Below are positions 3,815 through 26,093 of a DNA stretch of 64,000 nucleotides, one piece after another (the stretch's first letter is position 1; the number at the start of each line of letters is the position of its first letter). A program made the position numbers and the translations under genes. The notes beneath the pieces were generated by a model. The model was not told the DNA's origin. It saw only the letters and a program-made list of their open reading frames with translations, and made no database searches. This stretch comes from Camillea tinctor (taxonomy: Eukaryota > Ascomycota > Sordariomycetes > Xylariales > Xylariaceae). Location of the stretch: contig MU394055.1 of NCBI GenBank assembly GCA_022578605.1, positions 66,902 to 130,901 of the forward strand. The letters run 5' to 3'.

Positions 3815-4923
3815 CTAGCTAGACTTCCCTCCCACCTCATCCAACACATATGGCTCACCATCAATCTTCTTCCAGATAGGGTCACTCTTCAGTCTCATAT
3901 ACCATTCACTGTAATAATGGGAGTCAGTAATTGACATATTCGGTAATTCATGGACTCGTGAAACCACTGTCTCGGGAGTCAGAAGTCCTACGAACTCATA
4001 CGCTTAACTATGATAGGAAATTTGACTCCCGGACCGGCCCGAGGCAGGCCAAAAGGGGGAATAAAAGACTCCAGAAATTACTCACTGAATAGCTGGATGA
4101 GCAGCTGCCCATTTTTTAGTAAAAACCTACGATGTGTGAATTAGCCACATCATGACCCAACATACTTTGCCACATCGTAGAGCTGTACTCACGAATTGGT
4201 AACCTCTGGTAATGGCGGCGACCACGAATAAATCAGCTAAGGTGAGCTGATCCCCCACAAGATATTGCTTGCCTGTCAGCGCTTTCTCCACCACGCTGAC
4301 CATGGCCTCACTACTCGTCTCTACCTTAGAGAGGATCTCTGGAGATGAAGGCGCTTTCCCAATAACCGGATTAATCCAAGCCATTATAGGTGGGAGTAGT
4401 TCGCTATTGGCAAATGATGCCCACCTGAATATTTGGTCAGAAATAGAACATTCGATATCGGAAGCGGAACCTGAAGCCTACTTCAATACAGTGGCCTCCT
4501 CCTCTAAATTCGTCCCCAGTAATGCCGTCTTCGGATTCTGTTTAGCGACTAGATAATCACGGCATCAGTCCGGACGTTCGGCGTATGCATGTGGGGAAGG
4601 AAGTATAAGGTATCTTCAGCCTACGGTATATGGCAACAGGGATGCATTCGAATAGAGTAAATCCATTCGGTCGTTCTAGCGCCGGGACCTTTCCGGTAGG
4701 GAACTTGGATAGATATTCGTCGCCGACACCGCCTTTGTTAGGGTTTACTTTGATAGGCCATGCTTCGGTGTATTCGATATCGAGTCTTAGGTCAATGTCA
4801 GGAATCGCGCCAAGAGATAAAAGAAGAACATCTTAGCGATACGCACTTGTTCAGTTCTGCGATGTAGAGGCACATCGTAGCCCGTGGGGCTTTAGGATAC
4901 CAGTAAAGCTTTCCAAAGCTCAT
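3815..4923 (-). CDS. Glutathione S-transferase-like protein A (EF1B-gamma type)
   Basis: Six exons: 4923-4847, 4785-4625, 4548-4482, 4424-4193, 4126-4086 and 3908-3815, giving 223 aa. Read without splicing it looks like a broken gene, but each apparent stop lies in a GT-AG intron and all phases close. The protein starts MSFGKLYWYPKAPRATM and has a thioredoxin-like GST N-domain with GGVGDEYLSKFPTGKVPALE, then an all-helical C-domain with LLPPIMAWINPVIG and KQYLVGDQLTLADLFV, the family's LTLAD signature. The size and order fit the translation elongation factor 1B-gamma-like GST class that recurs in fungal metabolic clusters; known or presumed roles are glutathione conjugation or isomerisation. 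It is paralogous to the gene at 15270-16080, with the same splice phases after coding nt 238 and 537. It is divergent from the dehydrogenase at 5335 and shares a 411-bp promoter with two GGAGCTCC sites. Confidence 0.85.
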
Positions 4924-5160
4924 ATTCACAGCATTCAACAAGACAAGTAGGTAAGGTGAATTAGTTAACAGAATTATCGCTAATTGCTAAGACTTTATTA
5001 TATTAAAACCATCTTAGATTACACGAAGTGTGAACATATTTAGGGGATATATATAAATATCTTAAATTTCATATGACAGCATTGTGGTTGATATCCTCGT
5101 TGATGTTCGTGGTGACTGTCATGGCAAATGAGGATCAGTTGCGTGATCGGAATGGTAAGC

Positions 5161-5168
5161 GGAGCTCC
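5161..5168. promoter_or_regulatory. GGAGCTCC candidate operator 1
   Basis: Exact 8-bp palindrome 167 bp upstream of the dehydrogenase start and 238 bp upstream of the GST-like A start. Role as a binding site is inferred from its recurrence in the cluster. Confidence 0.5.
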
Positions 5169-5189
5169 AGTATCGTGCCCACAGAAGGT

Positions 5190-5197
5190 GGAGCTCC
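5190..5197. promoter_or_regulatory. GGAGCTCC candidate operator 2
   Basis: Second exact copy in the same divergent promoter, 138 bp upstream of the dehydrogenase start. Confidence 0.5.
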
Positions 5198-5334
5198 TAG
5201 TAGTTTGACGATCGGCTTCAATTTTGAGACCCGTGATAAGTTTCATAATAAGTTATTAGTATGACCTCGTGCAGAGGCAAGATGGTCTTGTGCGGTATCG
5301 TTTTAGAGTTCACTGATTATACGTTACGTCGAAA

Positions 5335-6413
5335 ATGGCTGGACTTCAAGTGGGCTGGATTGGATTAGGATCTATGGGCATTGGCATGTCCAGGAACCTT
5401 CAAAAGTATCTGTCAACTTCTGCTGCGCCGCCTTTGATATTTACCAACCGGACTCTATCTCGAGGCGACTCGTTGAAGGAACTAGGGGCCATTCCAGTAT
5501 CAAGTGTTGCCGAGGTGGCAAAGAAATCTGACATTATTTTCTCATGTGTAAGAGACTTGGACTCAATATGACAGTAGCCTCAGCATTCTGACTGGCCCCC
5601 CTTTTCTAGGTTAGCAACGATGCAGTCCTCCAGCAAACCGCCAACGAGATTATAAAATCTGGCGATATAAATGGCAAGATTTATGTTGATTGTTCTACGG
5701 TCCATCCAGAGACGTCTGTGGCAGTTTCTAAGGTCATTGCGCAGGCCGGAGCTGAGTTTGTTGCAGGTCGGTGCATCGAGACCCCTTACCCCTTTTTTTG
5801 CAAATATACTAACAAGTTCTCAAAAGCCCCTGTATTTGGTGCGGCACCCATGGCAGAGGCCGGAAAGCTTATCTTCGTCACGGCAGGCCCCGAGGCGGCA
5901 ACTGAGAAGATATCTCCTTATTTGACTGGCGTCATGGGAAAATCAGTTATAGCTATGGGGACTGATCATTCTAAGTCAAGTCTCTTGAAGATCGCGGGCA
6001 ACATTTGTGTAGTGTCCTTCATGGAGGTTATCTCCGAGGCTCACGTTTTCGCTGAGAAAACAGGACTTGGCACGGAGATTCTTGAAACCATGTTGGGGAC
6101 TATGTTCGGCCCTGTGATTGAAAGCTACTCTAAGCGGTTAACTACAGGCATTTACGCTCCCGCCGTTGGAGATAAAGCTGGTTTTGATGTGTCGCTGGCG
6201 ATCAAGGACGCTAAACATGCACTGAACTGCGCCCAGTCGGTTGGGACTAAACTAGAGGTTAGCGAGGTTGCGCTCAAACATATGGAGACAGCTAAGTCTC
6301 TTGTGGATGAAGGAAGACAATTGGATAGTAGCTCAATGTACGGTGCTATCAGGACAGATGCTGGATTGGATTTTTACACAGATCTTTGCAAGAAAAGAGA
6401 CGGTAAAATATAA
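5335..6413 (+). CDS. NAD(P)-dependent beta-hydroxyacid dehydrogenase (HIBADH/6PGDH-like)
   Basis: Three exons: 5335-5547, 5610-5766 and 5827-6413, giving 318 aa, normal for the 3-hydroxyisobutyrate/tartronate-semialdehyde/glyoxylate reductase superfamily. The N-terminal Rossmann motif is GLGSMGIGM (residues 10-18). The substrate-binding DCSTVHPETS lies near residue 98, and the APVFGA segment forms only after the second intron is removed. The catalytic Lys is K178 in SSLLKIAGN, followed by the long all-helical C-domain with KDAKHAL. The family oxidises or reduces small 3-hydroxy acids; GLYR1-type members reduce glyoxylate and succinic semialdehyde. In this cluster a natural role is reducing an aldehyde released by the aldolase at 18114-19121 (inference). 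It is divergent from GST-like A under a promoter with two GGAGCTCC sites and convergent with the permease. Confidence 0.9.
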
Positions 6414-6819: not shown

Positions 6820-8565
6820 TTAAACTTTATTGTCCACATCCTTTAAGCCTCCTACGATACTTTCCCGGCCTATATCATCACTACTCATGTTATCTACCCC
6901 TTCAATGATTTGTGGATTCTTCTTTGCCTTGCGTCTCTCCATATACAGCATAACTGTCACCCAAATAGCCATACCCGTGCCTACACCTATCAGTGCATAC
7001 ATTCCAATCTATTTAGTTATTAGCCAACAGATACTGATGTATAAAAAATAGTCATCGTATGAGAAAACCAAGAGGATTCGGTAGAGCACTCACAGTAAAC
7101 TCGGGTGCGTCGTCAGCACGGTAAAAGATCAGGGGCCACCACGCCTGGAAGACATTTCCTCCAAAATTCATGCAAGCGATAATGACAGCTCGGAGCGTCC
7201 TGGGTTCGTTTCGCATGCAATCGTTTGCCCAGGCAAAGAATGTTCCTTGAATACAATAGATAGTGCCGGACCAATAATATGCGGCATATTGGCCTGCTAT
7301 CGTTGTCGTAGGAACAAGCAGGATTACAGCGGTACAGATCGCAGTCGTGGCCACATAATAGCCCGATACCCATCGCCCTCCGAAAATGTCCGTAGCTGTA
7401 GCCCATATTAAGGTACTGGCGATACCCACTGCTTGGAGGCCCGTGGGATAGTTGTTGAGCTGGTAAATCGTGTAATGTCTTTCAGGATGTCCTTGCATGT
7501 ATAGGTTCATGAGGGATTGGTTCCCCAGAGACTCCGAGCAGTTGCCCAATATCCATAAAAGACCAAAACCGTAGAAATACCAGGAGTTAAATACTTTGTA
7601 TACAAAAGAACGGCTCATAATGGGTACTTCCTCAATTATTGGACAACGTTCTTTGGCTAGACGCTTCTCTTCGTCGCTAAAGTAAGGCGCCGTCGTTGTG
7701 TGTGGCGTATCAGGGAAGAAGAAGTAGCCATAGGCAGCGACTGGGAGAGTAATTATACCGTCGATCTAGAGCTTGTATTAGATACGGCTGGAAAGCGACG
7801 GCTTGAAGCAACAAGTACTCAAATGCACTCACGATATAAAGCCATCTCCATCCCGGGAGGCCTGCTAGTCCATTCATAGAACTATATATACCCGTCTGTA
7901 AGAAACCCCCAAACATACCCCCGGCCAACCCACTCGCCGTGAATAGACCAGTTCGCTTACCCAACTCGCTTTTGGTATACCAGGAACCAAGAACAAATTG
8001 GGTTCCCGAGAATATACAGGACTCTGCGTAGCCCTGAAAGATGCGAATAGCCATCAGATGCTGGGGCTTAGTCGCCGCCGCATTGCACATAGTGAGCAAC
8101 GCCCAGACTACGATCATAAATGGAAAGAATCTTTTGGGTTTGAAGTATGTGAGTAGCATGTTGTTAGGAATTATACCACTAGTAGGCAAGACCACGTTAG
8201 CTGATTCTTACATATCCGTGTACCTAGAAGGGGAGAGCACAACATACATCAGATAACCGACTGAGTACATAGTCGTCACTTCAGTCAACTGGGCGCCTTG
8301 GAAATGTAGGTCTTCTTTCATGCCTGAGACGTATGCCTGGGTGACACTAGCTCGGTCAAGGTAGTTCCTGTACTCGACATGGTTAGGAAGAGAGACTTTG
8401 CATTTCCGCCGAACGTGTAGTTCTCAAGATAAACACGACTTACATGAAATACGCCAGGCAACAGAAGGTGAGAATAAAGAAGTCTAATTTGAAGATCAAC
8501 TTCTTCTCTGTAGGCGACGAGTGCTCGACGCGGAAGTAGTCTCGTATCTTTGATATGGTAGACAT
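6820..8565 (-). CDS. MFS permease, anion:cation symporter (Dal5/Fen2-like) family
   Basis: Five exons: 8565-8444, 8367-8248, 8178-7833, 7765-7094 and 7008-6820, giving 482 aa, close to the usual 480-520. The N-terminus MSTISKIRDYF leads to a first membrane span LDFFILTFCCLAYFM. The family-specific NYLDRASVTQAYVSGM follows, then TMYSVGYLIGIIPNNMLLTY, FVLGSWYTKSELGKRTGLF and GWRWLYIIDGIITLP, and the tail is charged and cytosolic. Dal5/Fen2/Liz1-type members import carboxylated small molecules such as allantoate, pantothenate, nicotinate and ureido acids at the plasma membrane. With the oxoprolinase/hydantoinase in the same block, uptake of a ureido, lactam or acidic substrate is plausible (inference). 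A 12-bp GAGGAGCTCCTC palindrome lies about 600 bp upstream of the start. Confidence 0.9.
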
Positions 8566-9834
8566 GATGGCAAACAATATTCAAGCCCGGCGCCTGGTTA
8601 TGCGAAGCCGGCTGTTCAAATCTGAGGAGGCCAAAGTGAGATAGTCCAGATGCTTCTCGGGTTCACAATTAATGGGAATCTACGTAGGTTTTGTATGTAC
8701 GACTGTCTATCAACCGAGGACATTCGTGTTGGAGACCTTGATTATACCCCCCAGTCCTGATATTCGCTTTGGGTTGGCAACTTTCGCGGCGCTCCAATAT
8801 CACACTACCCCACAAACTAGTTGATCCAGACTTTCTTTATCACCCACCCTAATAAGTCTGTGAGTTGACAAGGAAAGGGTTTCATGGAAATAGAACCGTG
8901 GCCAAAGTACCAACACCGGTCTGACAAGGCTGGTCACCCGGGCATAGGCCTTACAACGACGCAGAATATGCGTGTCCCCTGAGCCTAGATAGCGAATAAT
9001 ATCTTAGCTATTTCGTTATACTTACTACATCCAACATAGTTGGCACGCTAAGATAGACCTACATTGATACGTACCTAAGTTATAACTTAGTTAATAGTTG
9101 TCAATTGCGGGAAGTGGAGAAAATTGGCTCACACACGAAGCCCGGATGGTTATAGTTCCTTGGGAGGAGCTCCTCGCGATACCCCCTATCATAAAGCTAA
9201 CCATATCTGAGAGATAAAGCTTCCAATAAGCGTCAAGGCATGGAGCTGGTACAACAAGATAGATTGACTTGTATTACAACTTATGTTGCAACTTGGTTAA
9301 CTTGGTTGTTAGTGATTGTATAATGCTCTTGGGGTATACTACGGCTACTTCGGAATTTCTTGCCCTTTCCTTCTCATTGAAACTTAGAGACTAACGATAC
9401 ATCAAATGTGCATTGTATACCATTTTATTAAATTCTATAGATCCATTATGTATTGGTAGGTTTTTTCTTTCAGGAGTACTAAGTAGATTTGTGGTATATA
9501 GAATCATAAGGCACAACTGAAGACAATATACATTGAAAGGCGCAATTATAGAATTTCCGGGCAACGACCATGATATTACTTATGTTCATACTAGGAAATT
9601 CGTGACACAAGGCGAAGATATCCTGATGAGGGTTTATAAAAAAAAGGTCTTGTCAGTGGAGAAATAGAGTTCATAATGTGATTTGAGTAATATCAATTTA
9701 ATCATAAGCATTGATGAACCAGGGCGCTCCCATCTCTTCTCGTTAATTCCATGCTTTCAAAAAAGGATTGTAAAATGTACCACGGATTCTTTTGCTCAAT
9801 ACTATCACATTGACTTATAACCTGATCTTCTAGG
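8566..9834. other. Permease promoter and intergenic region
   Basis: About 1.3 kb without a supportable exon. It contains the palindrome at 9164-9175. The part nearest 9835 is the 3' flank of the oxygenase gene. Confidence 0.5.
9164..9175. promoter_or_regulatory. GAGGAGCTCCTC candidate operator 3
   Basis: Perfect 12-bp palindrome with the GGAGCTCC core at 9166-9173, identical to the one at 11441. It lies upstream of the permease, whose start is at 8565. Confidence 0.5.
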
Positions 9835-11106
9835 TTAAGCCTTCAGAGTTGGGACATAGACCTCTCTTGGAACGTTATCGAATTTCCCAAGGCTCTTGTG
9901 ACCATCCGGGTCTGGATACTCGCCAGCAAAGAAATCTGCATGTTTAGTTGGATCCGCAGGACGGTCAATATCATACTCATATCGCTTCCAGCCATGTTTC
10001 CGGGCATCCAAGTAATCAGCCATGCAGAAGACCCGATCGTCTATAGGCTTATCGGCACCCAAGCGCTTCAGCAGAGGGGAGTTCTCGATAGGGACTAGTT
10101 GCCGATCATCAGCTGGGCGTGCAAAGTAGATAACTCCAATGCGGCGCAAGTGACGCTGATCCTTAGGCGGAGTCACTACCCGGTGTATTGTGGCCTTGAA
10201 CAGTCCACCAGTCAAGCGCTCTGTGGCCTCGCCGAAGTTAATGACGAGACCCTTGGGCTGATGCTCAACCCAGCGATAACGGCCATCAGTGTGATCTAGG
10301 ACCTGAAGGGCAGAAATAGGTTGCGAGAAAAGGAAAGTCCAAGAGCCCCAGTCCGTGTGGCCGGAAAGGAAGATGTCCCGATACTTCTCAGCCTCTTCCT
10401 CAGGACGAGGTTCGCACATCATATAACGGATATACTCTGTCTTAGAACCCCCTGGAGCATGTGTGGCTAGTACTTGCTCTTCAGGCACCTCAAGGATCAT
10501 AGCCATCAAGATGAGGAGTTTCCTCAGGATATTGGTTCGGATGAAATGCATGACTTCCTGCGTCTCCTCGAGATAAGGACGCATGATCTCAGGGTGAGGT
10601 CGATTCTTTGGGTCGTGGACGAGGATGTTATAGTGATCGAGTTGCTTAGGAAAGCCACCTTTATGACCAAGGGGACCAGAAGGTTTGTATCCCACGTATA
10701 GACCGCGGGCGTCTTCCTCAGGAGTAACTGATCCCTGTGTAAGTCGTATATCAATAAGAAGGAGTGTTGGTTTATCATCTTACCTTCATAGGGCGACTTT
10801 TCGTCCGGTGGGAGAGTCATCATAGCATTGGCAATCTGCATTTGCCGAGCATAGACCTCGTCAGAGATACCGTGGTTGGTAAGTGTGAGAAATCCATATC
10901 CAGTTGCAGCTTCGTAGAGGTCTTTGGCAAGCTCTTTGCGTCCGACCGGGTCGTCAAACTTCGCAAGATCGATATTCACGAGTTTAACGTAGTCCACTGT
11001 GAGATAGAGTTTTAGTTTATTATTTATTTTTTGTTGATGGCTGTGAAAGAGTCAACTTACATGGTTCCTTGGACGGAGACGCTGGCGTGTATGGGGGAAG
11101 AGACAT
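9835..11106 (-). CDS. 2-oxoglutarate/Fe(II)-dependent oxygenase (isopenicillin-N-synthase-like)
   Basis: Three exons: 11106-11061, 10996-10784 and 10727-9835, giving 383 aa. The DIOX_N region starts VKLVNIDLAKFDDP and has GYGFLTLTNHGI. The C-terminal jelly-roll carries the iron-binding HxD in SGHTDWGS (H210, D212) and the distal His in ATIHRVV (H268). R282, about 14 residues later, is suitable for binding the 2-oxoglutarate carboxylate. All metal ligands are present, so an active enzyme is expected. The family hydroxylates, desaturates or cyclises small substrates using O2 and 2-oxoglutarate; the substrate cannot be read from sequence. It is divergent from the C2H2 factor at 12375 and has a GAGGAGCTCCTC site 335 bp upstream. 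It may hydroxylate the compound that the oxoprolinase, aminotransferase and aldolase then process (inference). Confidence 0.88.
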
Positions 11107-11440
11107 ATTGGATAAAGATAACTTGGCGACACAACTGGTTAGTCTTCCTATAAGCCCTATAAGCTTCCAAACAGAGGATGGTAGAGTAGTGATTGTTGAA
11201 TCGAAAATAGTTCTCTATCTTATCCGATTATCTGAAGACTAGATATATTAATGAATAGTTTTCAAAGCATAGTCAGTGCCACTCTCTGAAGCAAGCCAGT
11301 AATCGTACAAGATGGATCATCATCATTCCATGACACCACATTATTTCCATACAAGGCATGCATGCTGCATGTATGAGGACCTGAGCATGTTGCTCAAAAG
11401 TCAGTTGGTGCATTCGCTCTCCACCGTTGGAGACAAGTAG

Positions 11441-11452
11441 GAGGAGCTCCTC
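11441..11452. promoter_or_regulatory. GAGGAGCTCCTC candidate operator 4
   Basis: Perfect 12-bp palindrome identical to that at 9164. It lies 335 bp from the oxygenase start and about 920 bp from the C2H2 factor start, so it could also serve autoregulation. Confidence 0.5.
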
Positions 11453-12374: not shown

Positions 12375-14895
12375 ATGGATGCATCGGTGGTTGACAATAA
12401 GCCGTTCTCTTGTCCAGCTTGCCCAAGTCGCTTCACCAGACAAGTATGAATCTTTTCATCTCCTCTACGCAAATACGTCCTCTCTAATATTTCAATTAAC
12501 AGGAAAATTTAAACCGTCACACTGCATCAGGTATGGACTTGCGTATCTATATAGTTTCTTACGTACCTACTACTTATGATACTTGATGGTCAGTCATCCA
12601 GTAGAGGCTATTCACTAATGAGGGGTGGTTTAAGTCCATAGGAAGTCCAATCGAAGACCGTATCCCTGCCCCTTATGTGAAGTGAGCTTCTCTAGAAGGT
12701 GCCTTTTCGCCCAACCTATAATTGATTCAAGTTCATTTGCTAACATCCTGGGAAGTGATTTAAGAAAGAGACATGTGAAGAAATGTCACCCCCAGGACGG
12801 CACTGGGGCAGTTGGACTGACCACTGTGCCGGGTACGAGCACTGGAGAGGTGTTGAACTCAGAGCCGGCGACGGCACAGACACTTCCCTTGTCTCGACCA
12901 CTCTCAACTGGTGCTCTCGAGCCACAATCCCAATCAAATTCGCGAGCTGATACGGTAAAGCCCATGTTGGTTTTTAGTCTTGTGGTGTCTCTAACTTAAT
13001 TCTTGGGTAGGAATCAGTTCAGGTCTCGAATTTATTCTCAGCGCAGAATATATCCTGGCTATTTAGACTGCCGCAGTTTATCGCAGAATACTTCGAAAGG
13101 TTCCATCCCTCTTTTCCAGCCTTGCATAAGCCGACATTTGATGTGACAGTCGCCAAAGAGCCTCTGCTACAGGCAATTGCCTGTATCGGGGCGATGTATC
13201 ATTCACCAGCGTGCAATAATAATAATATCAGTATGGCTCTCTTTGAAGCAGGACATAAATTCTTAGATTCATACGTTAGTTTGCGGTCAGATCTCCACAT
13301 ACTTCCACCCCTATCTAATAGCAGCTCGTAGATTCGAGAGGATCGATCAAGATTTCGAGAGACTTGGGTCATCCAAGCCTATGTTCTTTTTGAGTATTTT
13401 GCACTTTACAGCTGCCGGGACAACCTCTTCCCAATCGCTGTCAGGATCCATCGCAAAATCGTCGACGCAGCCAGACAGTTCCAGTTATTCCAGGATGGGA
13501 TTACGTTAGGCAGTTGTGCTTCTGTAGCATCGCCTAACCAAGCCCATACCCCTGGAAACAGGCCTGTGCAGCCTTCGTCTCCTTCTTGGTCCGTGGAACA
13601 TGACTGGCAGGTTTTCATCAAGAATGAGTCGAGAAAACGGTGAGTTAAAAGTGTCGACAATAACCAATTATATGAAGGCTGCTGACGAGATTTATAGCAT
13701 CATGTATTGTTTATATTATCTCGATGCCCAACTATCCATATGTTGCAATATGCGACCTTTATTAACTGCTCTTGAACTGAAGTACGAGCTGCCCTGCAGA
13801 GATGACGTTTGGTCTGCTCTTACAGCGAATTCTTGGCATTTACTCTTACAAGGACAAGACTTCTCTTTCAACGAGGAAGATGATTACGAGGGTAATGGAG
13901 AGCCTCGCCCTGCACAGGGTGACCTCTACGAAAGTTTGATGCATCTGATGAATCCGGATCCATCCGATCGCCCGCTTGGCCTACTCTGGTATTCATCTTT
14001 CGCATCACTTATGTTGATCATCCAGATTCAAATGATGACCAGAGAGTTGACGCTGGCGAGCATATTTCTATATAATAATGTTCGGGGCCAGGAGACCCGC
14101 CACAACCTGTCGATAATAACGGAAGGGAACCGAGCACCCATAATGCAAGCTTTGAACAATCTGGCCGATCTCATGCCTAGGCCAAGCTCTACGGCATGGT
14201 CTGCTGTCTTCAATAGTGACTCTTCAACTTCTGTCCACGCGGCTCTCTGGCACTCCGTCTGGATGGTATGGCATTACACGGCTATTTCATTGACACACCA
14301 AGATGCATTGCTTACTAGCGGCATTGTTGAATATAGCCTCCCCAATGCCATATCAACGGCGTGGGAACTTGGAAAGCCTCGAGCAAAAGAGCATCGTGAT
14401 GTATATGAGGACCGAGACGTGATGCGTGTTGTTGATAACCTGGAGCATATCATTCAGATGCTAGGAACACCTCCCACGGGAGCACTCCTCCGAGATCCCA
14501 CAGGGACGGTCGGTGATGGACCTTGTATTGAGGACCCGTTCGCGACTGTTATCGGTTTCAAGGCGTGCATGATGGGTTGGCGGGTCATACGGCTTATGGC
14601 ATTAGGATGTGAGCAGCACATAGGAACCGGTTCTGAGGTCTTCCAGATGCCAAGACCAAGCTTATGTTCTCTATCTTCACAGGTAATTCTAGCACGTGTA
14701 ATGGAGATGTTAGGCCCAGAAACCGGTGACCAGTCCCAGTATCAACAGGTTAATCAGAGCCATCTGGGAGTGGTCAGCAATGCCGAGGCTAGGTATCTAG
14801 AGTGGACTGAACGGACATTCGCCTTGAGAGATATTTGGCCACCGGGGGAATGGGTTGTAGCTGTCTTTAACGAAAATAGAGATGGCGCAGGATAA
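12375..14895 (+). CDS. C2H2 zinc-finger transcription factor with fungal middle domain (probable cluster regulator)
   Basis: Seven exons: 12375-12443, 12503-12530, 12635-12698, 12756-12954, 13011-13274, 13332-13639 and 13698-14895, giving 709 aa. Splicing three tiny exons restores two zinc fingers. Finger 1 is FSCPACPSRFTRQENLNRH with ligands C13, C16, H29 and H34. Finger 2 is YPCPLCEVSFSRSDLRKRH with C44, C47, H60 and C64. A Ser/Thr-rich linker follows, then a fungal-specific regulatory middle domain beginning LFRLPQFIAEYFERFHPSFP and continuing WVIQAYVLFEYFALYSCRDN. This domain order is typical of pathway-specific activators. It sits in the middle of the metabolic block, divergent from the oxygenase. 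The GGAGCTCC palindromes in the block's promoters are candidate targets; two-finger proteins usually read 4-6 bp, fitting a GGAG half-site (inference). Confidence 0.88.
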
Positions 14896-16080: not shown

Positions 16081-16714
16081 GGTGGCAATGAGGTAAGATT
16101 GCGGTCTCTATTTCCGTTTCTCTGTCCTAAAATGGGTATTAACTCAATATGAGACGAATGTGACCAAGGGCGATGAGGAGAAGTAGTACGGAAGGGAAGG
16201 GATAGTGGTAAATGATCCCAATGTTAGGAAATATTGGTAAAGCTAAAAGGAGTTCGATCTCAACCGAAATCCCTACCGATGAATGCTGATCAATCTGTGA
16301 CGGGGAGATCAACGTTCAATATATTTCTTTACTAATTACCCAATACATGTCCCCTATAACGTAATTGAATTCTGTGAGCAAGCCAATTAGTGTGAGGTCG
16401 TGACAGTAATGGTGTGTATCTCGCGGACAACATCTGGAGTTGATCCGGAGGAGCTCCGCTCGGCGCTCGTGTACTGTATGCAAGCATTCAGCTTATCCCC
16501 ACTAATGCCCGGCATTGATAGAAAATTATCAGAGAGTATTCTGCCTTGGGATGTATCGGTCATTACATATACTCATACCCATATAGTTAGTTGCGATACA
16601 GGTCCAGTTGGTATATACTATATCTCTAAATCGTAGGCTATCAAGTGCGAAAAGCCCAACGGGGAATGATAACCACATCTTACCTCATCTACGTGATCAT
16701 TCATATTTCGTCTA
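16081..16714. promoter_or_regulatory. Divergent promoter, GST-like B / SDR
   Basis: A 634-bp interval with outward-facing genes on both sides and one GGAGCTCC site near its middle. No supported coding exon. Confidence 0.55.
16450..16457. promoter_or_regulatory. GGAGCTCC candidate operator 5
   Basis: Exact core; the flanks give GAGGAGCTCCGC, one base off the 12-bp palindrome. It is 370 bp from the GST-like B start and 258 bp from the SDR start. Confidence 0.5.
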
Positions 16715-17834
16715 ATGGATATCTCGTGAGTTATTCCCTGCTTTCAACCTTGGAATACGATAACTGATGCCTTTTATAGTCATGTGTTAGTTACAGGCGC
16801 GACGGGATTTGTTGGTGCCCATGTCGTCGATAGTCTATTGAGGAAGGGCATCAAAGTTAGAGCGGTCGCTCGCTCGAAAAAGAAGGCGGACCTAATGAAA
16901 GCCGCAAGACCTCAATACACGTCACTGTTGGACTTCTACTTCATCGACGATCTCAATACACCGGGTATCTTTGACGATGCAGTTAAAGACGTTGATGGAA
17001 TCATCCATGTTGCTAGTGTAAGTGTTGGAGCTCTGCTCTTTTTATCTGAGACTGACGCTGGTGCTCGTGCCTCAGCCCCTCAACTACAGTGTTCATGATT
17101 ACGAGAAGGAGTTAATTCTTCCAGCGATACAAGGTGTTCGCTCTATCATGGAAGCTAGTGTCGATACTAAAGTGAAAAGAGTAGTCATGACTTCGTCTTT
17201 TGGTGCCGTTCTTGATATGACCAAGGAAGAAAGTCTCCCTTGGACTTATTCATCGGAATCTTGGAATCCTATAAGCTATGGTGAGGCTTCAGCTCCTAAT
17301 GCGACTCCACAGGAAGCCTACCGGGGATCGAAAACCTTCGCAGAGAAAGAGGCATGGAAATTCATCTCAGAAAAGAAACCGCAGTTCGATCTTGTGACAC
17401 TATGTCCATCTATGGTTTTTGGGCCTCTAGTCGACAGTCCGTCATCAGTTCAAGAACTCAATGAGTCGAACAAGGTTCTATGGAGAGTGGTGTCTGGCGG
17501 GCAGTCTCAACCACTTCCCCCCTGTCGGTTCAATTTCTGGATAGATGTGAGGGACCTTGCCGAGATACATATTCAGGCGTTAGTCACTCAGTCAGTTGGT
17601 GGCAAGAGATATGTCCCAGTGGCACCAGAGCCATTTACTTATCAGATGGCTTCGGAAATCGTTAGTGAGGTGTTTCCATCACGGCGCGACAAGGTTTCAT
17701 CTGGGGTACAGGAAGTGAAGACACATATAAAGGTTGATCAAAGTCTCATGAATGAAAACTTTCCGACTATTAAATATAGGACATTCAGAGAGACTGTTGT
17801 TGACTTTGTAAGTCAAATAGATGTTCTGTCATAG
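16715..17834 (+). CDS. Extended SDR, NAD(P)-dependent reductase/epimerase (Gre2/DFR-like)
   Basis: Three exons: 16715-16725, 16780-17017 and 17076-17834, giving 335 aa. The first exon is only 11 nt (Met-Asp-Ile plus two bases of Ser), but it supplies the start and removes the need for an internal Met. The Rossmann motif is VTGATGFVGAHV, with the Gly-x2-Gly-x2-Gly at residues 10-16. The active site has MTSSFGAV (Ser near 123-124) and YRGSK (Y165, K169). The C-terminal region PLPPCRFNFWIDVRDLAEIH matches the aldehyde-reductase/dihydroflavonol-reductase branch of extended SDRs. Members reduce aldehydes and ketones with NADPH. It is divergent from GST-like B and probably supplies a reduction step in the same pathway (inference). 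Confidence 0.9.
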
Positions 17835-18113: not shown

Positions 18114-19121
18114 TCATAACGAATTCTCTAAGTCTACTATCTTCTGTAGTATCTCATCCCTTTCTCCAGTAAACGTGCTGCTCTGGATGGGTAACAACGG
18201 CCGCCTACTCCTGCCACCGCCATACTTATAGTACTTGTCCATAGCTGCCTTCAGCCCTGAAACTCCCATACGCACAAGTACCCAGTCCACTTCGCTCAGT
18301 TGAGTCTGAAGCTCTTGGGCAGAATTTAGATTCCCTTCATCATATAGCTTTAGCAATTTCACGTGTACCTTTGGTACTAGGTTCGCGGCAGCACCTATCA
18401 GCCCGTTTGACCCAGCCACCAGCCCATGGAGAAAGAAATCCGACTTCCCAGCAAATGCCGCGAAAGGCGTCTGAATTCGCTTGTCGTGGGCTACACGATG
18501 GAGCTTCCCCAAGTTCCCACAAGTTAGTTTACACCCAACAATCTTGTTGGGATTCGCAGCTGCAAGGCCCGCAATAAGATCAGAGTCAAGGTCAATTCCA
18601 GATGTTACCCCTGGAAAGTTATAAAGCAAAATTGGTATTGGCGAAACACTGGCGACATCAGAAAAAAACTTCTGAATGGTCGGTTGCTGCATTGCTCCAA
18701 CTGTGCGTACCCAAAAACCCCAGTATATTAGCTAGAGAAGCCATCACTAGGAATGCATGAGAGACTCACCCCAGTAGCTAGGACTAAGTACCAAGGCAAA
18801 ATGAGCACCGGACTCGCTAGCTTCCTGGCAGAGTTGGATTGTTTCTCTTGTACTCTGCGCACCACACCCTGCAATAATGACAGCTTCGCGTTTTCCATAT
18901 TGCTTCAATGTAGCAAGAGCTGTTGAGATGACTTGCTTGCGCTCGGAATGATCCAGATGTGGTGCTTCTCCATTAGAGCCTTGAATCACCAACCCAGACA
19001 CACCAGCCTGAGCAAGACGTATAACGTGCTTCTGCAGAGCCCCTAGATCCAGAGTTTCGTCCTCGTGGAAGAATGCCACAACCGGTGCATATACACCTCG
19101 GGGAGGACAAGTAGGCGCCAT
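18114..19121 (-). CDS. DapA-family class I aldolase (HOG/KDG-aldolase-like)
   Basis: Two exons: 19121-18770 and 18700-18114, giving 312 aa, normal for the DHDPS/N-acetylneuraminate lyase superfamily. It has the pyruvate-carboxylate-binding loop GSNGE (residues 48-52), the proton-relay Tyr in LLYNFPGVTSG (Y144) and the Schiff-base Lys in KIVGCKLTCGN (K175). These residues mark a TIM-barrel lyase that makes or cleaves a C-C bond next to pyruvate. Fungal members are mostly 4-hydroxy-2-oxoglutarate or 2-keto-3-deoxy-sugar-acid aldolases rather than lysine enzymes, since fungi make lysine by the aminoadipate route. It is divergent from an aspartate-type aminotransferase 325 bp away. That pairing matches the last steps of hydroxyproline catabolism in animals (GOT2 then HOGA1) and supports a catabolic role (inference). 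Confidence 0.9.
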
Positions 19122-19446: not shown

Positions 19447-20788
19447 ATGGATTTCCCGAAGCAAGTCTCAATTTTTGACAATGCTGTCCTTATCCCAACT
19501 GATTCTATTTTTGACGTAACGAGAAGATACCTTGCTGATGAGACCCCGGACAAGGTCAATCTTGGGCAAGGGACATACCGTGATGAAAATGGCAAGCCTT
19601 GGATCTTACCATCTGTCCGTATGGCCAAGGCCTCCATCGGAGAGTGCGGCCATGAGTATCTACCAATATCGGGGCTTAAAGCGTTCCGAGACGAGGCAGC
19701 GAAGCTAGCTTTCCGCGGGACAAGAGCGCTGGATGAAGATCGTGTAAGTGAAAAAAGGCAAAAAGAGCGGCAGTCTTATTATATTAACCTAGAGCTAGAT
19801 TGCGACATGCCAGTCTCTCTCAGGAACCGGAGCTCTTCTTCTAGCTGGGATGGCACTGAAGAAGGCGGATTCTGGGATCACGACTATATACATTACGGAC
19901 CCGACGTGGTCAAACCACTCGCTGATGTTCAGCTCGCTGGGTTACGAAGTCAAGACAATACCCTATTACAAACAAGGGAGATTTGACTTTGATAACTACA
20001 TGAGCGTTCTACGAACTGCCGACGCGAATTCAGCAGTGGTACTTCACGCGTGCGCGCACAACCCAACAGGCTGTGATCCGTCGCGCGAGCAATGGAAAGA
20101 GATCGCCTCCGTCATACAAGAGAGGCGCATATTTCCCATTTTCGACTCAGCTTACCTAGGGTTCAACTCGGGTTCCGTAAACGAAGATGCGTGGGCGATT
20201 CGGTACTTCGTAGAGGACTTGGGGCTGGAGGCATCCGTGTGCCTGTCGTTCGCCAAGAGCATGGGCCTCTATGGCGAGCGGATCGGCCTAGTCACTTTCG
20301 TTACTGCGTCTGTGAAAATAGCGTGTACTATGGGCTCGATTCTTGAGAACATGCAACGGGCGACGGTGTCGAACCCTCCAGCATATGGGGCACGAATCGC
20401 CGCCGCAGTCTTGGGCACACCCGCGATCGCGGAGCAGTGGGCTAAGGACCTGATTACTATGTCCAGTCGCATTAAATCAATGCGCCAGAAGCTATACAGC
20501 GAGCTTACAAGTCTGCAAACTCCAGGAGATTGGTCACATCTCATCAAGCAGACTGGCATGTTTGGCTACACCGGTATAAGTCCTGCTCAGGTTGCATATC
20601 TTGAAGGTGAGTATCTGCATGTGTCTCGTTACGAACACTTCGTGCATGGTGCTAATTATGTAACAGATAAACATCATGTCTACATGGCAGAAACATCGAG
20701 GATTTCCATTGCCGGCCTCAATGAAGGAAACGTAACTTACTTTGCTAGGGCTCTGGATGATGCTGTGAGGAATGTGACGTCGGCATAG
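19447..20788 (+). CDS. Aspartate/aromatic-type aminotransferase (PLP fold type I)
   Basis: Three exons: 19447-19743, 19814-20606 and 20667-20788, giving 403 aa, the usual size. The PLP motifs are in order: VNLGQGTYRDENG near the N-terminus, SLSGTGALLLAG (phosphate-binding SGTGA, restored by removing intron 1), HNPTGCDP (Asn182), FDSAYLGF (Asp210, Tyr213), SFAKSMGLYGERIGL with the PLP Lys at K247, and SRISIAGL for the substrate-carboxylate Arg. It belongs to the aspartate aminotransferase subgroup, which moves amino groups between aspartate or glutamate analogues and 2-oxoglutarate or oxaloacetate. There is no clear mitochondrial presequence. Next to the aldolase and oxoprolinase, a 4-substituted glutamate is a reasonable substrate (inference). 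Confidence 0.92.
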
Positions 20789-21367
20789 GTGGATATGGGC
20801 CGGCTTCTGATCGGCAAGATCGGCTGTCACTGCATATAGGAAGTAAGTCTAGCTAAGACAATAACAGGTGGACTATTAGTATAGACTAGGTTAGATTACT
20901 CTTAGTTCCTATCCTCTTTGTCCTCCTACTCCTCCGGGTGGAGGACAGGTGGAGCTCCAACAACTATCCTCTATGTTACTTGCAGGTGTCTTATCCTCCT
21001 TCCTCCTCCTCTTGGCTGTTGTCCCTCTCCAGCTGCAGCAATGTCAGTGAATGCTTAGCGACAACTGGGGCAGGTTGAGCCGCGGCCACGATAACGTTGT
21101 CCCGATCGTAGAGCCCTCTGCGAGGAGCATAGCTAGTATCATAGGTTCTATGGGACTCAACGCCGGTCGGCTACGGACCGGATAGGAATGCGATGAAGAT
21201 CAAAAGCTCAAGGAGCGCGCCGACTATACGTAGTGGATTGTATACTCTAGTAAATGTAAAGACGTACAATTAAAATTTACTATATCACTATTTTTTATAA
21301 GCAAACTCTCTTTCAATTGGGATGTAACCGTCGAGGCCGTGGATATCCTAGACCTAGTAGTAGCACA
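20789..21367. promoter_or_regulatory. Promoter region of the oxoprolinase/hydantoinase
   Basis: A 579-bp interval with a pyrimidine-rich stretch near 20900-21030 and one GGAGCTCC site. Confidence 0.5.
20951..20958. promoter_or_regulatory. GGAGCTCC candidate operator 6
   Basis: Exact palindrome 410 bp upstream of the oxoprolinase start. Confidence 0.5.
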
Positions 21368-24300
21368 ATGGGCTTGAAACAGAATGAAGTTCGTGGGATT
21401 TGTATTGCAATCGACAGAGGCGGTACCTTTACCGATGTGAGTCGGTCTTAAAGAATGGGGAAAATGTAATAAGTCACTAACACGAGCTCCAAAGTGCGTT
21501 GCGACGGTCCCAGGACAAGATGATATCTTGGTCAAGCTCCTGTCGGTAGACCCTAGTAATTATCCAGATGCTCCGGTCGAGGCAATTCGTCGGGTGCTGG
21601 AGAAAGCTATGGGAAAGCCGTACCCAAAAGGGGAGAAGATTTCTCTGCGAGGAGTAGGTTCGTAACGGTCTACACAGACATAAACGTTGAACGATGGCTA
21701 ACGCCTCTCAGAGTCAATTAAGATGGGAACGACAGTGGCAACCAACGCTTTACTCGAGCGAAAAGGAGAAAGAACCGTATTTGTTGTTACAGAGGGCTTA
21801 AAAGTAAGTGCTATTTTGCCTAGCTGCTTGAGCAGTAAAGGAGCATCAGCCAATTAACACTGAACAAGGATTTACTACACATTGGGAACCAATCCAGGCC
21901 AAGGCTTTTTGATCTGGCGATAAACAAGCCCGATGTTCTATACTCGAAAGTCATCGAAGTCCCGGAGCGGGTGACACTAGAGGCTTGGACTGAGAGGAAG
22001 AACCCGGTAGCCATTGATTGCCAGTCAGATGCCGCACTCATCAAGGGCATAACAGGCGAAGCTGTGAGAGTCCTAAAGCCAATAGGTAAGCGACCAATCA
22101 GAGTTAGAGTCCATCATGCCCATTAAGAGTAAACTAACACGATGAAAGACCTGGGAAAGACAAGAAAAGCTCTTCAAGAAGTTTACGATGAGGGCTACCG
22201 CTCTATCGCTATCTGTCTCATGCACAGTTACACATTCCGCAACCACGAGCTGGCCGTAGGAAAGCTGGCGGAAGAAATTGGCTTCACGCATATCTCGCTG
22301 AGTGCTGAACTATCTCCCACCATCAAAATCGTGCCTCGGGGTAATTCATCCACTGCGGACGCGTATCTGACCCCCGAGATTAAGCGCTATATCGATGGTT
22401 TCGAAAGCGGGTTTTCGGACCTGAGAACCAGTGGGTGTCGCTGTGAGTTCATGCAGAGTGACGGGGGTCTCGTGGAGTTTTCCGGCCTTTCAGGGCTGAG
22501 GGCGATTCTCTCTGGCCCTGCAGGAGGTTGTGTTGGATACGCCAAAACAGCATACGACATTCAAGATAAGACTCCAGTAATCGGGTTCGACATGGGCGGA
22601 ACTAGCACAGATGTTTCCCGGTTAGTAGCCCCTACTTCTCGATCTCCCATATTAGCCATGGTTATTAACGATTATGCTATAGGTATGCGGGTAAACTAGA
22701 ACAAGTCTTTGAGACTACGACGGCAGGAGTCACTGTGCAGAGTCCTCAGCTAGATATTAACACGGTAGCAGCAGGAGGTGGGAGCATACTTGCCTGGGAG
22801 GCGGGAATGTTTAGGGTCGGGCCGGACAGTGCGTCTGCTCATCCCGGGCCGGCCTGCTACCGAAAGGGGGGTCCGCTCACGGTGACGGACGCCAATCTCG
22901 TACTCGGACGTCTGAGACCAGAGTTCTTCCCAAAAATATTTGGGCCAAATGAAGATTTACCCCTTGACATCGATGCGAGTAGGCAGCTGTTTGAAACTCT
23001 AACGGCCCAAATAAACCAGGAGAGTGCTGTGAAATTTACACTTGAGCAAGTCGCTGCTGGGTGAGTTGATCCAGTGCTAGCAGGGTGTCTATCTAGGTCT
23101 GATAATGTGCTAACGATGGTTAACAGGTTTCTCGACGTGGCTAATGAATCTATGTGCCGTCCTATTCGTACTCTTACGGAGGCTAAAGGATATGATGCTG
23201 GACTTCACAATCTTGCTTCCTTTGGAGGAGCCGGAGGCCAACATGCCTGCGACATTGCGAGGAAGCTCGGCATCTCGCGTGTACTGATTCACAAGTATTC
23301 CTCAGTTCTCTCAGCATATGGCATGGCTCTGGCCGATGTCGTCCACGAGGAACGCAGCCCGTGTGCTCTCATATACTCCGAAGACAACCTAGAGACCTTT
23401 GCCACAGAACTCGACAGGCTACAAGTGAAATCTATTGGTGCTCTTCTGAAGCAAGGCATTGCCGAGTCGAGGATCGTTTCGGAGCGGTATCTCAATATGC
23501 GATTCCACGGTAGTGACACGCCCCTGATGATCCAAGAAATACCTAGGTCAAGCGAGGACTTCCTGGCTTCATTTAAGAATGCTCACAAACAGCAATTTGG
23601 TTTCCTGCCAGTTGGAAGAGAAGTTATAATAGATGATTACCGCGTGCGATCTATTGGCGCAAGTGGGATCGAGGGTCCGACCCCTTGGACGACAGACCTA
23701 GCCACACTTAAGGAGAACTGGGTGAACGATGCCAAGACAACGAAAGAGGTCTACTTTAAGGAATTAGGATGGCATCAAACACCATTATACAGTCTGGATA
23801 CATTGGCACCGGGCAGCAAAATACAAGGTCCCGCACTGCTAATGGACAATAAACAGACTGTAGTTGTCACCGTTGGGGCCACTGCGACGATTCTTTCTAG
23901 CAACATCGTGATCGATATTCAGAACGGAAAGAAGGAGGCCCTTTCTTCCAGCACCGTCGACCCCATTCAGTTGTCTATATTTGGACATAGATTCATGGGG
24001 GTCGCAGAGCAGATGGGACGGGCGCTCCAGAAGACTAGCGTCAGCACCAATATCAAGGAACGCCTTGACTTTTCCTGTACTGTATTCTCGCCTGATGGCG
24101 GGCTGGTAGCTAATGCACCACACGTGCCCGCAATGGTAAGTTTACTTTTCATTGCAGCTATCTGTTTGTATGTACTGCATCTGACGTTATATGTAACCTA
24201 GATTGGTAGCATGGCGTTTGCTGTAAAATGGCAGATTGACCATTGGGGGAATGACCTCCGCCCTGGGGATGTCATATTGTCAAATTCTCCTGGTAAGGCT

Positions 24301-26093
24301 TGCTCTTCTCTGCTTGACTGCTATTGACGTGTATTCTAACTCTTTCACCATATTAGTTTGCGGTGGTACCCATTTGCCTGACTTGACTGTCATCACACCG
24401 GTTTTCGATACCGAAGGTAAAGATATTATCTTCTGGACCGCTTCGCGCGGACATCACGCAGATGTAGGCATTCTAAACCAAACTACGAATTATTCATTGT
24501 TCACTGCTAAAATTCAATCTACCCAGATTGGCGGAATCCTTCCTGGTTCAAGTGAGTAGTTTACAAATTTGCATTATTGCTTTATATAACCCACCCTTAC
24601 CCTAGAGATGAGTTCTCAAATATGGGAACGCTGTAAGAGAATCCTGAACTAACTCATGTATCCAGTGCCCCCGAACTCGAGGGAGCTTTGGGAAGAGGGT
24701 GCTGTGATCAAGGCATTCAAGGTGGTTGAAGGGGGAGAGTTCAAAGAAAAGGAGCTGACAGACCTCTTGATGGCACCCGCACAATGGCCGGGGTGCCAAG
24801 GAACCCGTTGCCTGCGGGATAACATATCTGACATCAAGGCACAGGCTGCGGCTAATCATCGCGGAAGCCAGCTTATACACTCCCTCATCGCCGACTATGG
24901 ACTTGAAGTTGTACAATTCTACAGTAGGTTTCCCTTACGATGATTTCTGAAGATGGTCTTTAGAAGCTGAATCCCTTTTTTTAGTGGAGGAAATACAAGG
25001 AGCTGCTGAACTTGCAGTTCGCGATATGCTGAAGAGGATATACAAAATGACGGATGGCAAGCCTCTCAAGGCCGTCGACTATATGGACGATGGGACGCCG
25101 ATACAGCTTAAGGTAGAGATTGATTACAAGACAGGCGGTGCAATCTTCGACTTCGAAGGGACTGGTCCAGAAGCCTACGGTACATTATCCCCCTTTTCTT
25201 CAATCCTATTAGATCCTAGATTAGTGAAACACTAACACAAAGACACAGGGAACTGGAATGCACCAATAGCTATTTGTAACTCGGCAATTATCTTTGCTCT
25301 ACGGTGTATGGTCAACATGGACATTCCACTGAACCAAGGAGCCATCAGGCCAATTCAAGTGCGAATTCCAGAGGACTCGCTACTGCGGCCATCCGAGGAC
25401 GCGGCTGTCTGCGCAGGAAACGTACTCACATCGCAGCGTATCGTGGATGTGATATTCAAAGCTTTCAACGCGGTGGCCGCTAGCCAAGGATGCATGAATA
25501 ACCTCACATTCGGCACGGATGACGCGGAGGAGGGGTTCGGATACTATGAGACAATCTGCGGCGGGTCGGGGGGAGGACCAAGCTGGGATGGGACTAGCGG
25601 GGTGCACACTAACATGACAAATACGAGGATCACAGACCCGGAGATCCTCGAGCGGCGGTACCCTGTGATACTCCGGCGATTTTGTCTACGGTCTGGTAGC
25701 GGTGGAAGGGGTGCTCATCCCGGAGGCGACGGCATCATTCGCGATATTGAGTTCAGCTTGCCCATCAAAGTATCGATCCTTAGCGAGAGACGATCATTTA
25801 GCCCGTACGGGCTCGAGGGTGGTGAGGACGGGAAGAGAGGACAGAACATCTGGGTGAAGAAAGGCGGCCGGACCATTAACCTCGGCGGCAAGAATACGGC
25901 CATGATGGAAGCTGGTGACAGGATCGTCATACAGTCGCCCGGCGGCGGAGGTTGGGGCACACCGCGCCAAGTTAATGGGAAAGGAATAAATGGAGCGAAC
26001 GGGCTGGCGAGTAGTAAACCTACTCTGAGCCCGTTCTTGAGCGTTGCTAATGGCACTGTTGATATGATACAATCCATGGGAGAATCAGCCTAG
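21368..26093 (+). CDS. 5-oxoprolinase / hydantoinase (HyuA-HyuB fusion), ATP-dependent
   Basis: Twelve exons: 21368-21436, 21495-21657, 21712-21803, 21869-22085, 22149-22620, 22683-23060, 23127-24135, 24202-24292, 24357-24551, 24666-24923, 24985-25179 and 25249-26093. The product is 1327 aa, the length of eukaryotic 5-oxoprolinases. The HyuA half opens [11 protein letters not shown] (ATPase phosphate loop), followed by [43 protein letters not shown] and [19 protein letters not shown]. The HyuB half follows from about residue 750, with [39 protein letters not shown] and the Gly-rich [10 protein letters not shown] tail. The reaction is ATP-driven opening of 5-oxo-L-proline or related lactam and hydantoin rings in the cytosol. 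Nothing is missing, so it should be active. As the largest enzyme of the block it probably defines the substrate class; whether it acts on 5-oxoproline, a substituted form or a hydantoin cannot be decided here. Confidence 0.93.

What the first reader, a model, noticed from the sequence alone, without database searches (positions are those of the whole stretch)
3815..26093. Ten-gene metabolic cluster built around a 5-oxoprolinase/hydantoinase, without any backbone synthase
Ten consecutive genes: two GST-like proteins, a hydroxyacid dehydrogenase, an SDR, a 2OG/Fe(II) oxygenase, a DapA-type aldolase, an aminotransferase, an oxoprolinase, a Dal5/Fen2-type permease and a C2H2 regulator. No unrelated gene interrupts them, and four divergent pairs share promoters. 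Standard cluster finders that look for PKS, NRPS or terpene synthases would miss it. I know of no described fungal cluster with this set, but I could not search.
Basis: partly seen in the sequence, partly recalled or inferred. Interest (0 to 1): 0.88.

Follow-up and report, generated by a model that had tools for sequence, protein, structure and literature searches.

The report
Fungal gene cluster for lactam breakdown
Ten neighbouring genes in a fungus appear to form one co-regulated pathway that imports a small ring-shaped acid (a lactam) and takes it apart into everyday metabolites; part of its enzyme core is kept together in many other fungi, and we found no description of it.

Summary
In detail: ten intact, intron-containing genes fill 3815-26093 of a fungal window close to Biscogniauxia mediterranea, with four divergent pairs. 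Three new results favour a unit. (1) The palindrome GGAGCTCC lies in five of six upstream regions of the cluster (no other 8-mer reaches five) and once elsewhere in the 64 kb; the cluster's C2H2 regulator has finger helices that predict GNGGAG, and 9 of 12 half-sites fit. (2) In relatives, aldolase and oxoprolinase are on one contig in 13 of 19 species named in both hit lists, and the C2H2 gene with either in 9 of 17. A sister pair is linked in 14 of 25. (3) The oxoprolinase falls in a paralogous clade that travels with the aldolase, and the aldolase keeps six of seven active-site residues of human 4-hydroxy-2-oxoglutarate aldolase. Most likely: import of a 5-oxoproline-type lactam, ATP-driven ring opening, transamination, cleavage to pyruvate plus an aldehyde or oxo acid, and its reduction. 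The substrate (perhaps 4-hydroxy-5-oxoproline) is inferred. Linkage of the other six genes in relatives, and expression, were not tested.

The parts
3815..4923 (-). GST-A, EF1B-gamma-like glutathione S-transferase, 6 exons, 223 aa
   Evidence: gene model; GST_N/GST_C Pfam; 62% identical to GST-B
5161..5168 (.). GGAGCTCC palindrome, promoter of GST-A/dehydrogenase pair
5190..5197 (.). GGAGCTCC palindrome, second copy in the same promoter
5335..6413 (+). beta-hydroxyacid dehydrogenase (HIBDH / tartronate semialdehyde / glyoxylate reductase superfamily), 318 aa
   Evidence: gene model; NCBIfam (below cut-offs); PDB
6820..8565 (-). Dal5-like anion:cation symporter (MFS), 482 aa
   Evidence: gene model; NCBIfam TIGR00893 112.7 bits, below its cut-off
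9166..9173 (.). GGAGCTCC palindrome 601 bp upstream of the transporter start
9835..11106 (-). 2OG-Fe(II) oxygenase (isopenicillin-N-synthase-like superfamily), 383 aa
   Evidence: gene model; Pfam; PDB
11443..11450 (.). GGAGCTCC palindrome in the oxygenase/C2H2 promoter
12375..14895 (+). C2H2 (two fingers) + Fungal_trans transcription factor, 709 aa; finger helices RQENLNR and RSDLRKR
   Evidence: gene model; Pfam; contact residues kept in 18 of 18 close homologues in which both fingers could be read
15270..16080 (-). GST-B, EF1B-gamma-like, 230 aa
   Evidence: gene model; PDB; Pfam
16450..16457 (.). GGAGCTCC palindrome in the GST-B/SDR promoter
16715..17834 (+). SDR of the GRE2 / aldehyde-ketone reductase type, 335 aa
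   Evidence: gene model; PDB
18114..19121 (-). DapA-superfamily class I aldolase, HOGA-like, 312 aa
   Evidence: gene model; PDB; tree; structure of a 93% identical orthologue
19447..20788 (+). aspartate-aminotransferase type PLP enzyme, 408 aa
   Evidence: gene model; PDB
20951..20958 (.). GGAGCTCC palindrome upstream of the oxoprolinase
21368..26093 (+). HyuA-HyuB fused oxoprolinase/hydantoinase, 12 exons, 1327 aa
   Evidence: gene model; Pfam; tree

Best explanation
A pathway-specific catabolic gene cluster, switched by its own C2H2 factor acting on GNGGAG half-sites arranged around the palindrome GGAGCTCC. Proposed working: the Dal5-type symporter imports a carboxylated lactam, or a precursor that the 2OG-Fe(II) oxygenase (helped by GST and SDR steps) turns into one. 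The oxoprolinase opens the gamma-lactam with ATP to a glutamate-type amino acid. The dedicated aspartate aminotransferase makes the 2-oxo acid. The HOGA-like DapA aldolase cleaves it into pyruvate and an aldehyde or oxo acid. The beta-hydroxyacid dehydrogenase, and perhaps the SDR, reduce that product, while the GSTs handle reactive intermediates. If the lactam is 4-hydroxy-5-oxoproline, the steps give 4-hydroxyglutamate, 4-hydroxy-2-oxoglutarate, pyruvate plus glyoxylate, and glycolate. Shown here: the genes, grouping of three of them across fungi, the palindrome and its fit to the regulator's fingers, and conserved catalytic residues. Inferred: every substrate, the order of steps, that the factor binds the palindrome, and that the genes are co-expressed.
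For: Linkage: aldolase and oxoprolinase on one contig in 13 of 19 species named in both lists, with tags such as SLS62_009079/009081, G7Z17_g9080/g9082, B7463_g3959/g3957 and IFR05_002141/002142; C2H2 with either in 9 of 17, e.g. B7463_g3964 and G7046_g1240/g1243. Aminotransferase beside oxoprolinase: gene models that merge the two in Seiridium cardinale, S. cupressi and Pseudogymnoascus (P0141, P0151, P0157). The oxoprolinase falls in a 38-row clade, support 100, apart from the other oxoprolinase on this contig. In the aldolase tree the 13 linked type-1 rows and 13 linked type-2 rows fall in two clades, none in a third. The aldolase's best characterised PDB relative is human HOGA (140 bits; next YagE 114); equivalents of S77, N78, Y140, Y168, K196 and G222 are identical and S198 is Thr (positions counted by hand on the alignment; roles from passages of PMC3188589, where S198T kept kcat with 7-fold higher KM). 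The aminotransferase keeps both substrate-carboxylate arginines (alignments; residue roles recalled). Palindrome: the only 8-mer in five of six upstream regions, equalled in 1 of 300 shuffles; 6 sites where 0.12 are expected from genome density; 3 of the genome's 41 full GNGGAGCTCCNC sites; 9 of 12 half-sites carry the extra G that the fingers predict, P 4e-4.
Confidence: 0.47

Rival explanations
1. Sugar-acid catabolism: the DapA enzyme is a 2-keto-3-deoxy-acid aldolase of the fungal L-galactonate kind, fed by a galactonate-type transporter and reductases, with the oxoprolinase and aminotransferase as passengers.
For: The transporter's best NCBIfam model is D-galactonate transporter (112.7 bits, below cut-off); some relatives are auto-named L-threo-3-deoxy-hexylosonate aldolase; YagE, called a probable keto-deoxy-galactonate aldolase, is the next named PDB relative after HOGA.
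Against: Oxoprolinase and aldolase share contigs in species of several fungal classes (classes recalled), and linked rows form matching groups, so the oxoprolinase is hardly a passenger; sugar acids need no lactam opening or transamination.
Confidence: 0.17
2. Detoxification of a plant or microbial heterocycle (lactam or thiazolidine): GSTs, oxygenase and SDR modify the toxin, the oxoprolinase opens its ring, and the aminotransferase and aldolase dispose of the amino-acid part.
For: Two GSTs, an oxygenase and a GRE2-type reductase are typical of xenobiotic handling (typical is recalled). Fusarium FDB clusters are a precedent for lactam detoxification (abstract starts of PMC4726666 and PMC10512309).
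Against: Term searches of those two papers find no oxoprolinase, dihydrodipicolinate or aminotransferase; one 'aldolase' stands in a PKS-containing Fusarium cluster. This rival differs from the best explanation mainly in purpose and substrate and cannot be separated from it by sequence.
Confidence: 0.2
3. Biosynthetic cluster for a small non-PKS, non-NRPS metabolite, with the aldolase run in the synthetic direction.
For: GST, 2OG oxygenase and SDR tailoring enzymes occur in fungal biosynthetic clusters (recalled); after an EF1B-gamma, GST-B's best PDB match is 5f8b, a putative GST (recalled to be PsoE of the pseurotin cluster).
Against: An importer-type transporter family, an ATP-consuming lactam hydrolase and an aspartate-type aminotransferase point to breakdown; presence of the linked pair in many genera is unusual for a product cluster.
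Confidence: 0.1
4. Ordinary gamma-glutamyl-cycle salvage of 5-oxoproline and glutathione.
For: GSTs and an oxoprolinase-family enzyme together; Pfam oxoprolinase domains complete; a yeast (Lachancea) oxoprolinase is nearer to the cluster gene than to the other candidate.
Against: Another oxoprolinase 142 kb away groups with Morchella, Lipomyces, Basidiobolus and Calcarisporiella enzymes (72% to Morchella against 60% for the cluster gene; tree); the aldolase and dehydrogenase have no role in that cycle.
Confidence: 0.05

Closest known systems
Aspergillus nidulans nicotinate (hxn) cluster
   Same: Fungal catabolic cluster with its own C2H2 + Fungal_trans regulator HxnR (abstract start and section 15 of PMC5746545), a 2OG-Fe(II) oxygenase HxnY (passages of PMC9304392) and transporters (hxnP, hxnZ, recalled to be Dal5-like).
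   Different: hxn uses a molybdenum-cofactor nicotinate hydroxylase (abstract start) and, as recalled, monooxygenases, a cyclic imide hydrolase and an amidase. A term search of PMC9304392 finds no oxoprolinase, aldolase or aminotransferase, and one of PMC5746545 finds no 'palindrom'.
Mammalian hydroxyproline breakdown (aspartate aminotransferase, HOGA1, glyoxylate reductase)
   Same: Same enzyme classes for the last three steps; HOGA1 is the aldolase's best characterised PDB relative. That aspartate aminotransferase does the middle step is recalled.
   Different: The amino acid would come from a lactam opened by an oxoprolinase; the reductase here is a beta-hydroxyacid dehydrogenase (second PDB match 3doj, recalled to be plant GLYR1).
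Standard ATP-dependent 5-oxoprolinase (OPLAH/OXP1)
   Same: Same fused HyuA-HyuB architecture.
   Different: Falls in a separate clade from the oxoprolinase that groups with Morchella, Lipomyces and early-branching fungi; no enzyme with measured activity was in the tree, and one yeast row sits on the cluster's side.
Fusarium FDB1/FDB2 lactam detoxification clusters
   Same: Clustered fungal genes for handling a lactam-like compound (abstract starts).
   Different: No oxoprolin-, hydantoin-, dihydrodipicolinate, aminotransferase, aldolase or glutathione term found in PMC4726666.
A. nidulans lam genes for 2-pyrrolidinone (recalled)
   Same: Fungal lactam utilisation.
   Different: Recalled as a different, PxpA-like enzyme type; the search meant for them listed 8 of 201 papers, none of them on these genes by title.

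Membership tests
Fungal catabolic gene cluster with a pathway-specific regulator | Contiguous genes for transport, enzymes and a regulator | tested here: met
   Ten intact genes, no intervening frame of 120 aa or more
Fungal catabolic gene cluster with a pathway-specific regulator | Linkage conserved in other species | tested here: met
   Tested for three of ten genes: aldolase with oxoprolinase in 13 of 19 species, C2H2 with either in 9 of 17; aminotransferase beside oxoprolinase in three merged models; six genes not tested
Fungal catabolic gene cluster with a pathway-specific regulator | Shared cis element matching the cluster's regulator | tested here: met
   GGAGCTCC in 5 of 6 upstream regions; 9 of 12 half-sites fit the finger prediction; binding itself not tested
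Fungal catabolic gene cluster with a pathway-specific regulator | Co-induction by the substrate | not testable with these tools
   No expression data
4-hydroxy-2-oxoglutarate aldolase (HOGA) | Class I Schiff-base lysine and tyrosine/serine relay | tested here: met
   K196, Y168, Y140, S77 equivalents present (against PMC3188589 passages)
4-hydroxy-2-oxoglutarate aldolase (HOGA) | HOGA-specific substrate residues Asn78 and Ser198 | tested here: inconclusive
   Asn78 kept; Ser198 is Thr, which in human HOGA keeps kcat with 7-fold higher KM; the same residues occur in paralogues
4-hydroxy-2-oxoglutarate aldolase (HOGA) | Fold closer to HOGA than to DHDPS | tested here: inconclusive
Standard 5-oxoprolinase (OPLAH) | HyuA N, HyuA and HyuB domains in one chain | tested here: met
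   All present
Standard 5-oxoprolinase (OPLAH) | Orthology to enzymes with proven 5-oxoprolinase activity | tested here: inconclusive
   Separate 38-row clade, support 100, from the group with Morchella and Basidiobolus (quick tree); no row of proven activity included; Lachancea falls on the cluster's side
Aspartate aminotransferase fold-type I | PLP lysine and both carboxylate-binding arginines | tested here: met
   Aligned to cytosolic aspartate aminotransferases; residue roles recalled
hxn nicotinate cluster | Molybdenum-cofactor nicotinate hydroxylase hxnS | tested here: not met
   No such gene among the ten

The most novel reading that the evidence does not exclude
An ancient, undescribed Pezizomycotina pathway in which a second clade of ATP-dependent oxoprolinase opens 4-hydroxy-5-oxoproline (or another 4-substituted 5-oxoproline) and feeds the tail of the animal hydroxyproline route, so that 4-substituted glutamates from plants or cell-wall proteins become nitrogen and carbon sources; in this lineage it is governed by a dedicated C2H2 factor on the palindrome GNGGAGCTCCNC.
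Probability: 0.21. Interest if true: 0.78.

Novelty: new variant of a known kind. Interest (0 to 1): 0.57.

Why it matters
It gives a testable function for a clade of fungal 'oxoprolinases' that databases name after 5-oxoprolinase, and offers another candidate for a pathway-specific C2H2 regulator, a class called unusual for this role (PMC5746545, section 15). It also shows a way to find catabolic clusters without a backbone enzyme: a promoter palindrome that agrees with the finger code of a neighbouring regulator, plus locus-tag synteny.

Tried and rejected
Chance neighbourhood: rejected by linkage in other species and the palindrome statistics. Ordinary gamma-glutamyl cycle: made unlikely, not excluded, by the oxoprolinase tree. 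Nicotinate (hxn) cluster: rejected by gene content. FDB clusters: term searches of two papers gave no match to the core genes, except one 'aldolase' in a PKS-containing Fusarium cluster. Indole-lactam breakdown of the anaerobic indoleacetate kind (recalled): set aside because, as recalled, it uses no aspartate aminotransferase or DapA step; not searched. Structure comparison of the aldolase did not tell HOGA from DHDPS. The GSNGE/KLTC signature does not separate the aldolase from its paralogues. A second locus with three full palindromes (C72) was looked at and left: no homologue of the ten proteins in its first 30 kb. Literature: ten searches of an open-licence PMC library; I saw titles and abstract starts of the listed papers only, and some lists were capped (15 of 3,382; 8 of 583; 8 of 201; 12 of 54; 10 of 46). 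Passages were read in PMC3188589, PMC9304392, PMC10512309, PMC5746545 (and its section 15) and PMC5737690; PMC4726666 was term-searched without a match.

Species tallies were typed from the tables by eye and rest on hit lists capped at 120 of 1532 and 120 of 7996, so a missing species proves nothing. Type-2 pairs: 14 of 22, or 14 of 25 with Talaromyces marneffei, Aspergillus niger and Aureobasidium pullulans, which I had left out as many-strain species and which show no shared contig. Penicillium coprophilum counts among the 14, although its two tags are thousands apart. Unnamed metagenome rows were left out. The C2H2 rows of Exophiala and C. gloeosporioides may come from other strains than the aldolase rows. 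The aldolase tree used 47 of the 120 listed relatives and the oxoprolinase tree 45 of 120, chosen by hand.
Full report
What is there. The window lies at C5:66902-130901 of a 44.7 Mb genome. Its aldolase, oxoprolinase and C2H2 protein are 93, 93 and 91% identical to proteins of Biscogniauxia mediterranea, a Sordariomycete of the order Xylariales. I built models for all ten genes; each final model reads through without a stop. The layout is GST-A (-), dehydrogenase (+), transporter (-), oxygenase (-), C2H2 (+), GST-B (-), SDR (+), aldolase (-), aminotransferase (+), oxoprolinase (+). To the right come a GH72 glucanosyltransferase, a methyltransferase and other unrelated genes; to the left two open frames without a Pfam match.

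A shared promoter element. The palindrome GGAGCTCC occurs seven times in 64 kb, with 1.07 expected and none of 100 shuffles reaching seven. Six copies lie between 5161 and 20958, all between genes. Over the six upstream regions of the cluster (4486 bp) it is the only 8-mer present in five; 1 of 300 shuffles had any 8-mer in five or more, and none had one with at least four G or C. It is missing from the aldolase/aminotransferase promoter, which has a single GNGGAG half-site. Genome-wide, GNGGAGCTCC occurs 292 times counting strands, so 0.12 would be expected in the 18.4 kb where six sites lie. The full form GNGGAGCTCCNC occurs at 41 places in the genome, three of them here. The motif and the stretch were chosen after reading the sequence, so these are not pre-planned tests. 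Another contig, C72, also has three full sites in 17.5 kb, at least one inside an open frame, with no homologue of the ten proteins in its first 30 kb. The 180 kb around other oxoprolinase genes and left of the window (18 stretches) hold two copies of GGAGCTCC.

The regulator fits the element. The C2H2 protein has two fingers with helices RQENLNR and RSDLRKR followed by a Fungal_trans domain. By the usual recognition rules (recalled: arginine at -1 and 6 reads G, asparagine at 3 reads A, the first finger takes the 3' triplet) this predicts GNGGAG. Nine of the twelve half-sites have the extra G (P 4e-4 if it were 1 in 4). In the 18 of 48 close hits whose two fingers could be read, the contact residues are unchanged; two distant hits keep them too, so the code is not special to this cluster. 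This predicts binding and does not show it. Section 15 of PMC5746545 says that fungal pathway regulators are generally Zn2Cys6, with HxnR unusual.

The core is conserved, in part. Fungal genomes other than this one could not be searched, so I used contig lengths and locus tags printed with the homologues. Aldolase and oxoprolinase sit on the same contig in 13 of 19 species named in both lists; the contigs range from 32 kb to 2.4 Mb. Where tags of both are shown they are one or two apart: SLS62_009079/009081, G7Z17_g9080/g9082, B7463_g3959/g3957, IFR05_002141/002142. The other six show different contigs: Hypoxylon sp. NC1633, Stylonectria, Colletotrichum tofieldiae, Exophiala, Tolypocladium paradoxum, Fusarium nematophilum. 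The C2H2 gene shares a contig with one of the two in 9 of 17 species. The eight others are B. mediterranea, Hypoxylon sp. NC1633, Exophiala, three Colletotrichum species, Geosmithia morbida and Diplodia corticola; for some the two rows may be of different strains. In Seiridium (two species) and Pseudogymnoascus the gene models fuse an aminotransferase domain to the oxoprolinase, which points to adjacency. A more distant aldolase (50-55% identical) is on the same contig as a more distant oxoprolinase in 14 of 25 further species, many of them Aspergillus and Penicillium, e.g. N7454_007265/007268; in one of the 14, P. coprophilum, the genes are far apart.

The two trees. On the same contig, 142 kb from the cluster, lies another oxoprolinase that is 72% identical to Morchella's and groups with Lipomyces, Myxozyma, Basidiobolus and Calcarisporiella; the cluster gene falls in a separate 38-row clade with support 100 (quick method, long branches flagged). 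I take the former as the likely standard 5-oxoprolinase, but no enzyme of proven activity was in the tree, and the one yeast row, Lachancea dasiensis, is nearer to the cluster gene (62 against 54%). In the aldolase tree the 13 linked type-1 rows and the 13 linked type-2 rows (P. coprophilum not counted) fall in two clades and a third, 7-row clade has no linked row. The 13 linked type-2 species also form one oxoprolinase clade; of the 13 type-1 species five were in the oxoprolinase tree, four in the cluster's clade and Cadophora in the other. Xylona and Pestalotiopsis fici carry a cluster-type oxoprolinase but an aldolase of another clade on another contig.

Mechanism. Lactam hydrolase, aminotransferase and pyruvate-releasing aldolase make chemical sense in one order: open a 5-oxoproline-type ring to a glutamate analogue, transaminate, cleave. 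An aldolase of this type needs a hydroxyl at carbon 4 of the oxo acid, so a 4-hydroxylated or 4-hydroxy-4-substituted 5-oxoproline is the simplest entry; the products would be pyruvate and glyoxylate or a similar oxo compound, which the dehydrogenase would reduce. The oxygenase, SDR and GSTs would prepare the substrate or deal with reactive by-products. Everything about substrates is inference. A parallel arrangement on contig C49 of the same genome (oxoprolinase, aspartate aminotransferase, D-2-hydroxyacid dehydrogenase and transporter matches, but no DapA match) makes the coupling of ring opening and transamination more plausible.

Verdict. A real cluster whose core linkage recurs in other fungi. 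Its kind (regulated nutrient or detoxification cluster) is known; its gene set and probable chemistry did not appear in the listings of ten literature searches. The function needs the bench.

Noticed in passing
G000:C49:51480-65008 (L013, L014): Possible parallel cluster: D-2-hydroxyacid dehydrogenase, weak Fungal_trans match, MFS matches, an oxoprolinase paralogue and an aspartate-aminotransferase paralogue side by side; no DapA match within 41-81 kb.
   Followed up: partly
G000:C68:66086-70385 and 89457-93583: Two further oxoprolinase paralogues about 20 kb apart on one contig; at least six oxoprolinase-family genes in this genome.
   Followed up: no
G000:C72:942-18445: Three full GNGGAGCTCCNC palindromes in 17.5 kb, at least one inside an open frame; no homologue of the ten cluster proteins in the first 30 kb.
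   Followed up: partly
window 3815-4923 and 15270-16080: The two GSTs are 62% identical paralogues placed about 10 kb apart, suggesting duplication within the cluster.
   Followed up: no
P0168 (Lachancea dasiensis): A yeast oxoprolinase falls with the cluster's clade and is nearer to the cluster gene; long branch, place unsure.
   Followed up: no
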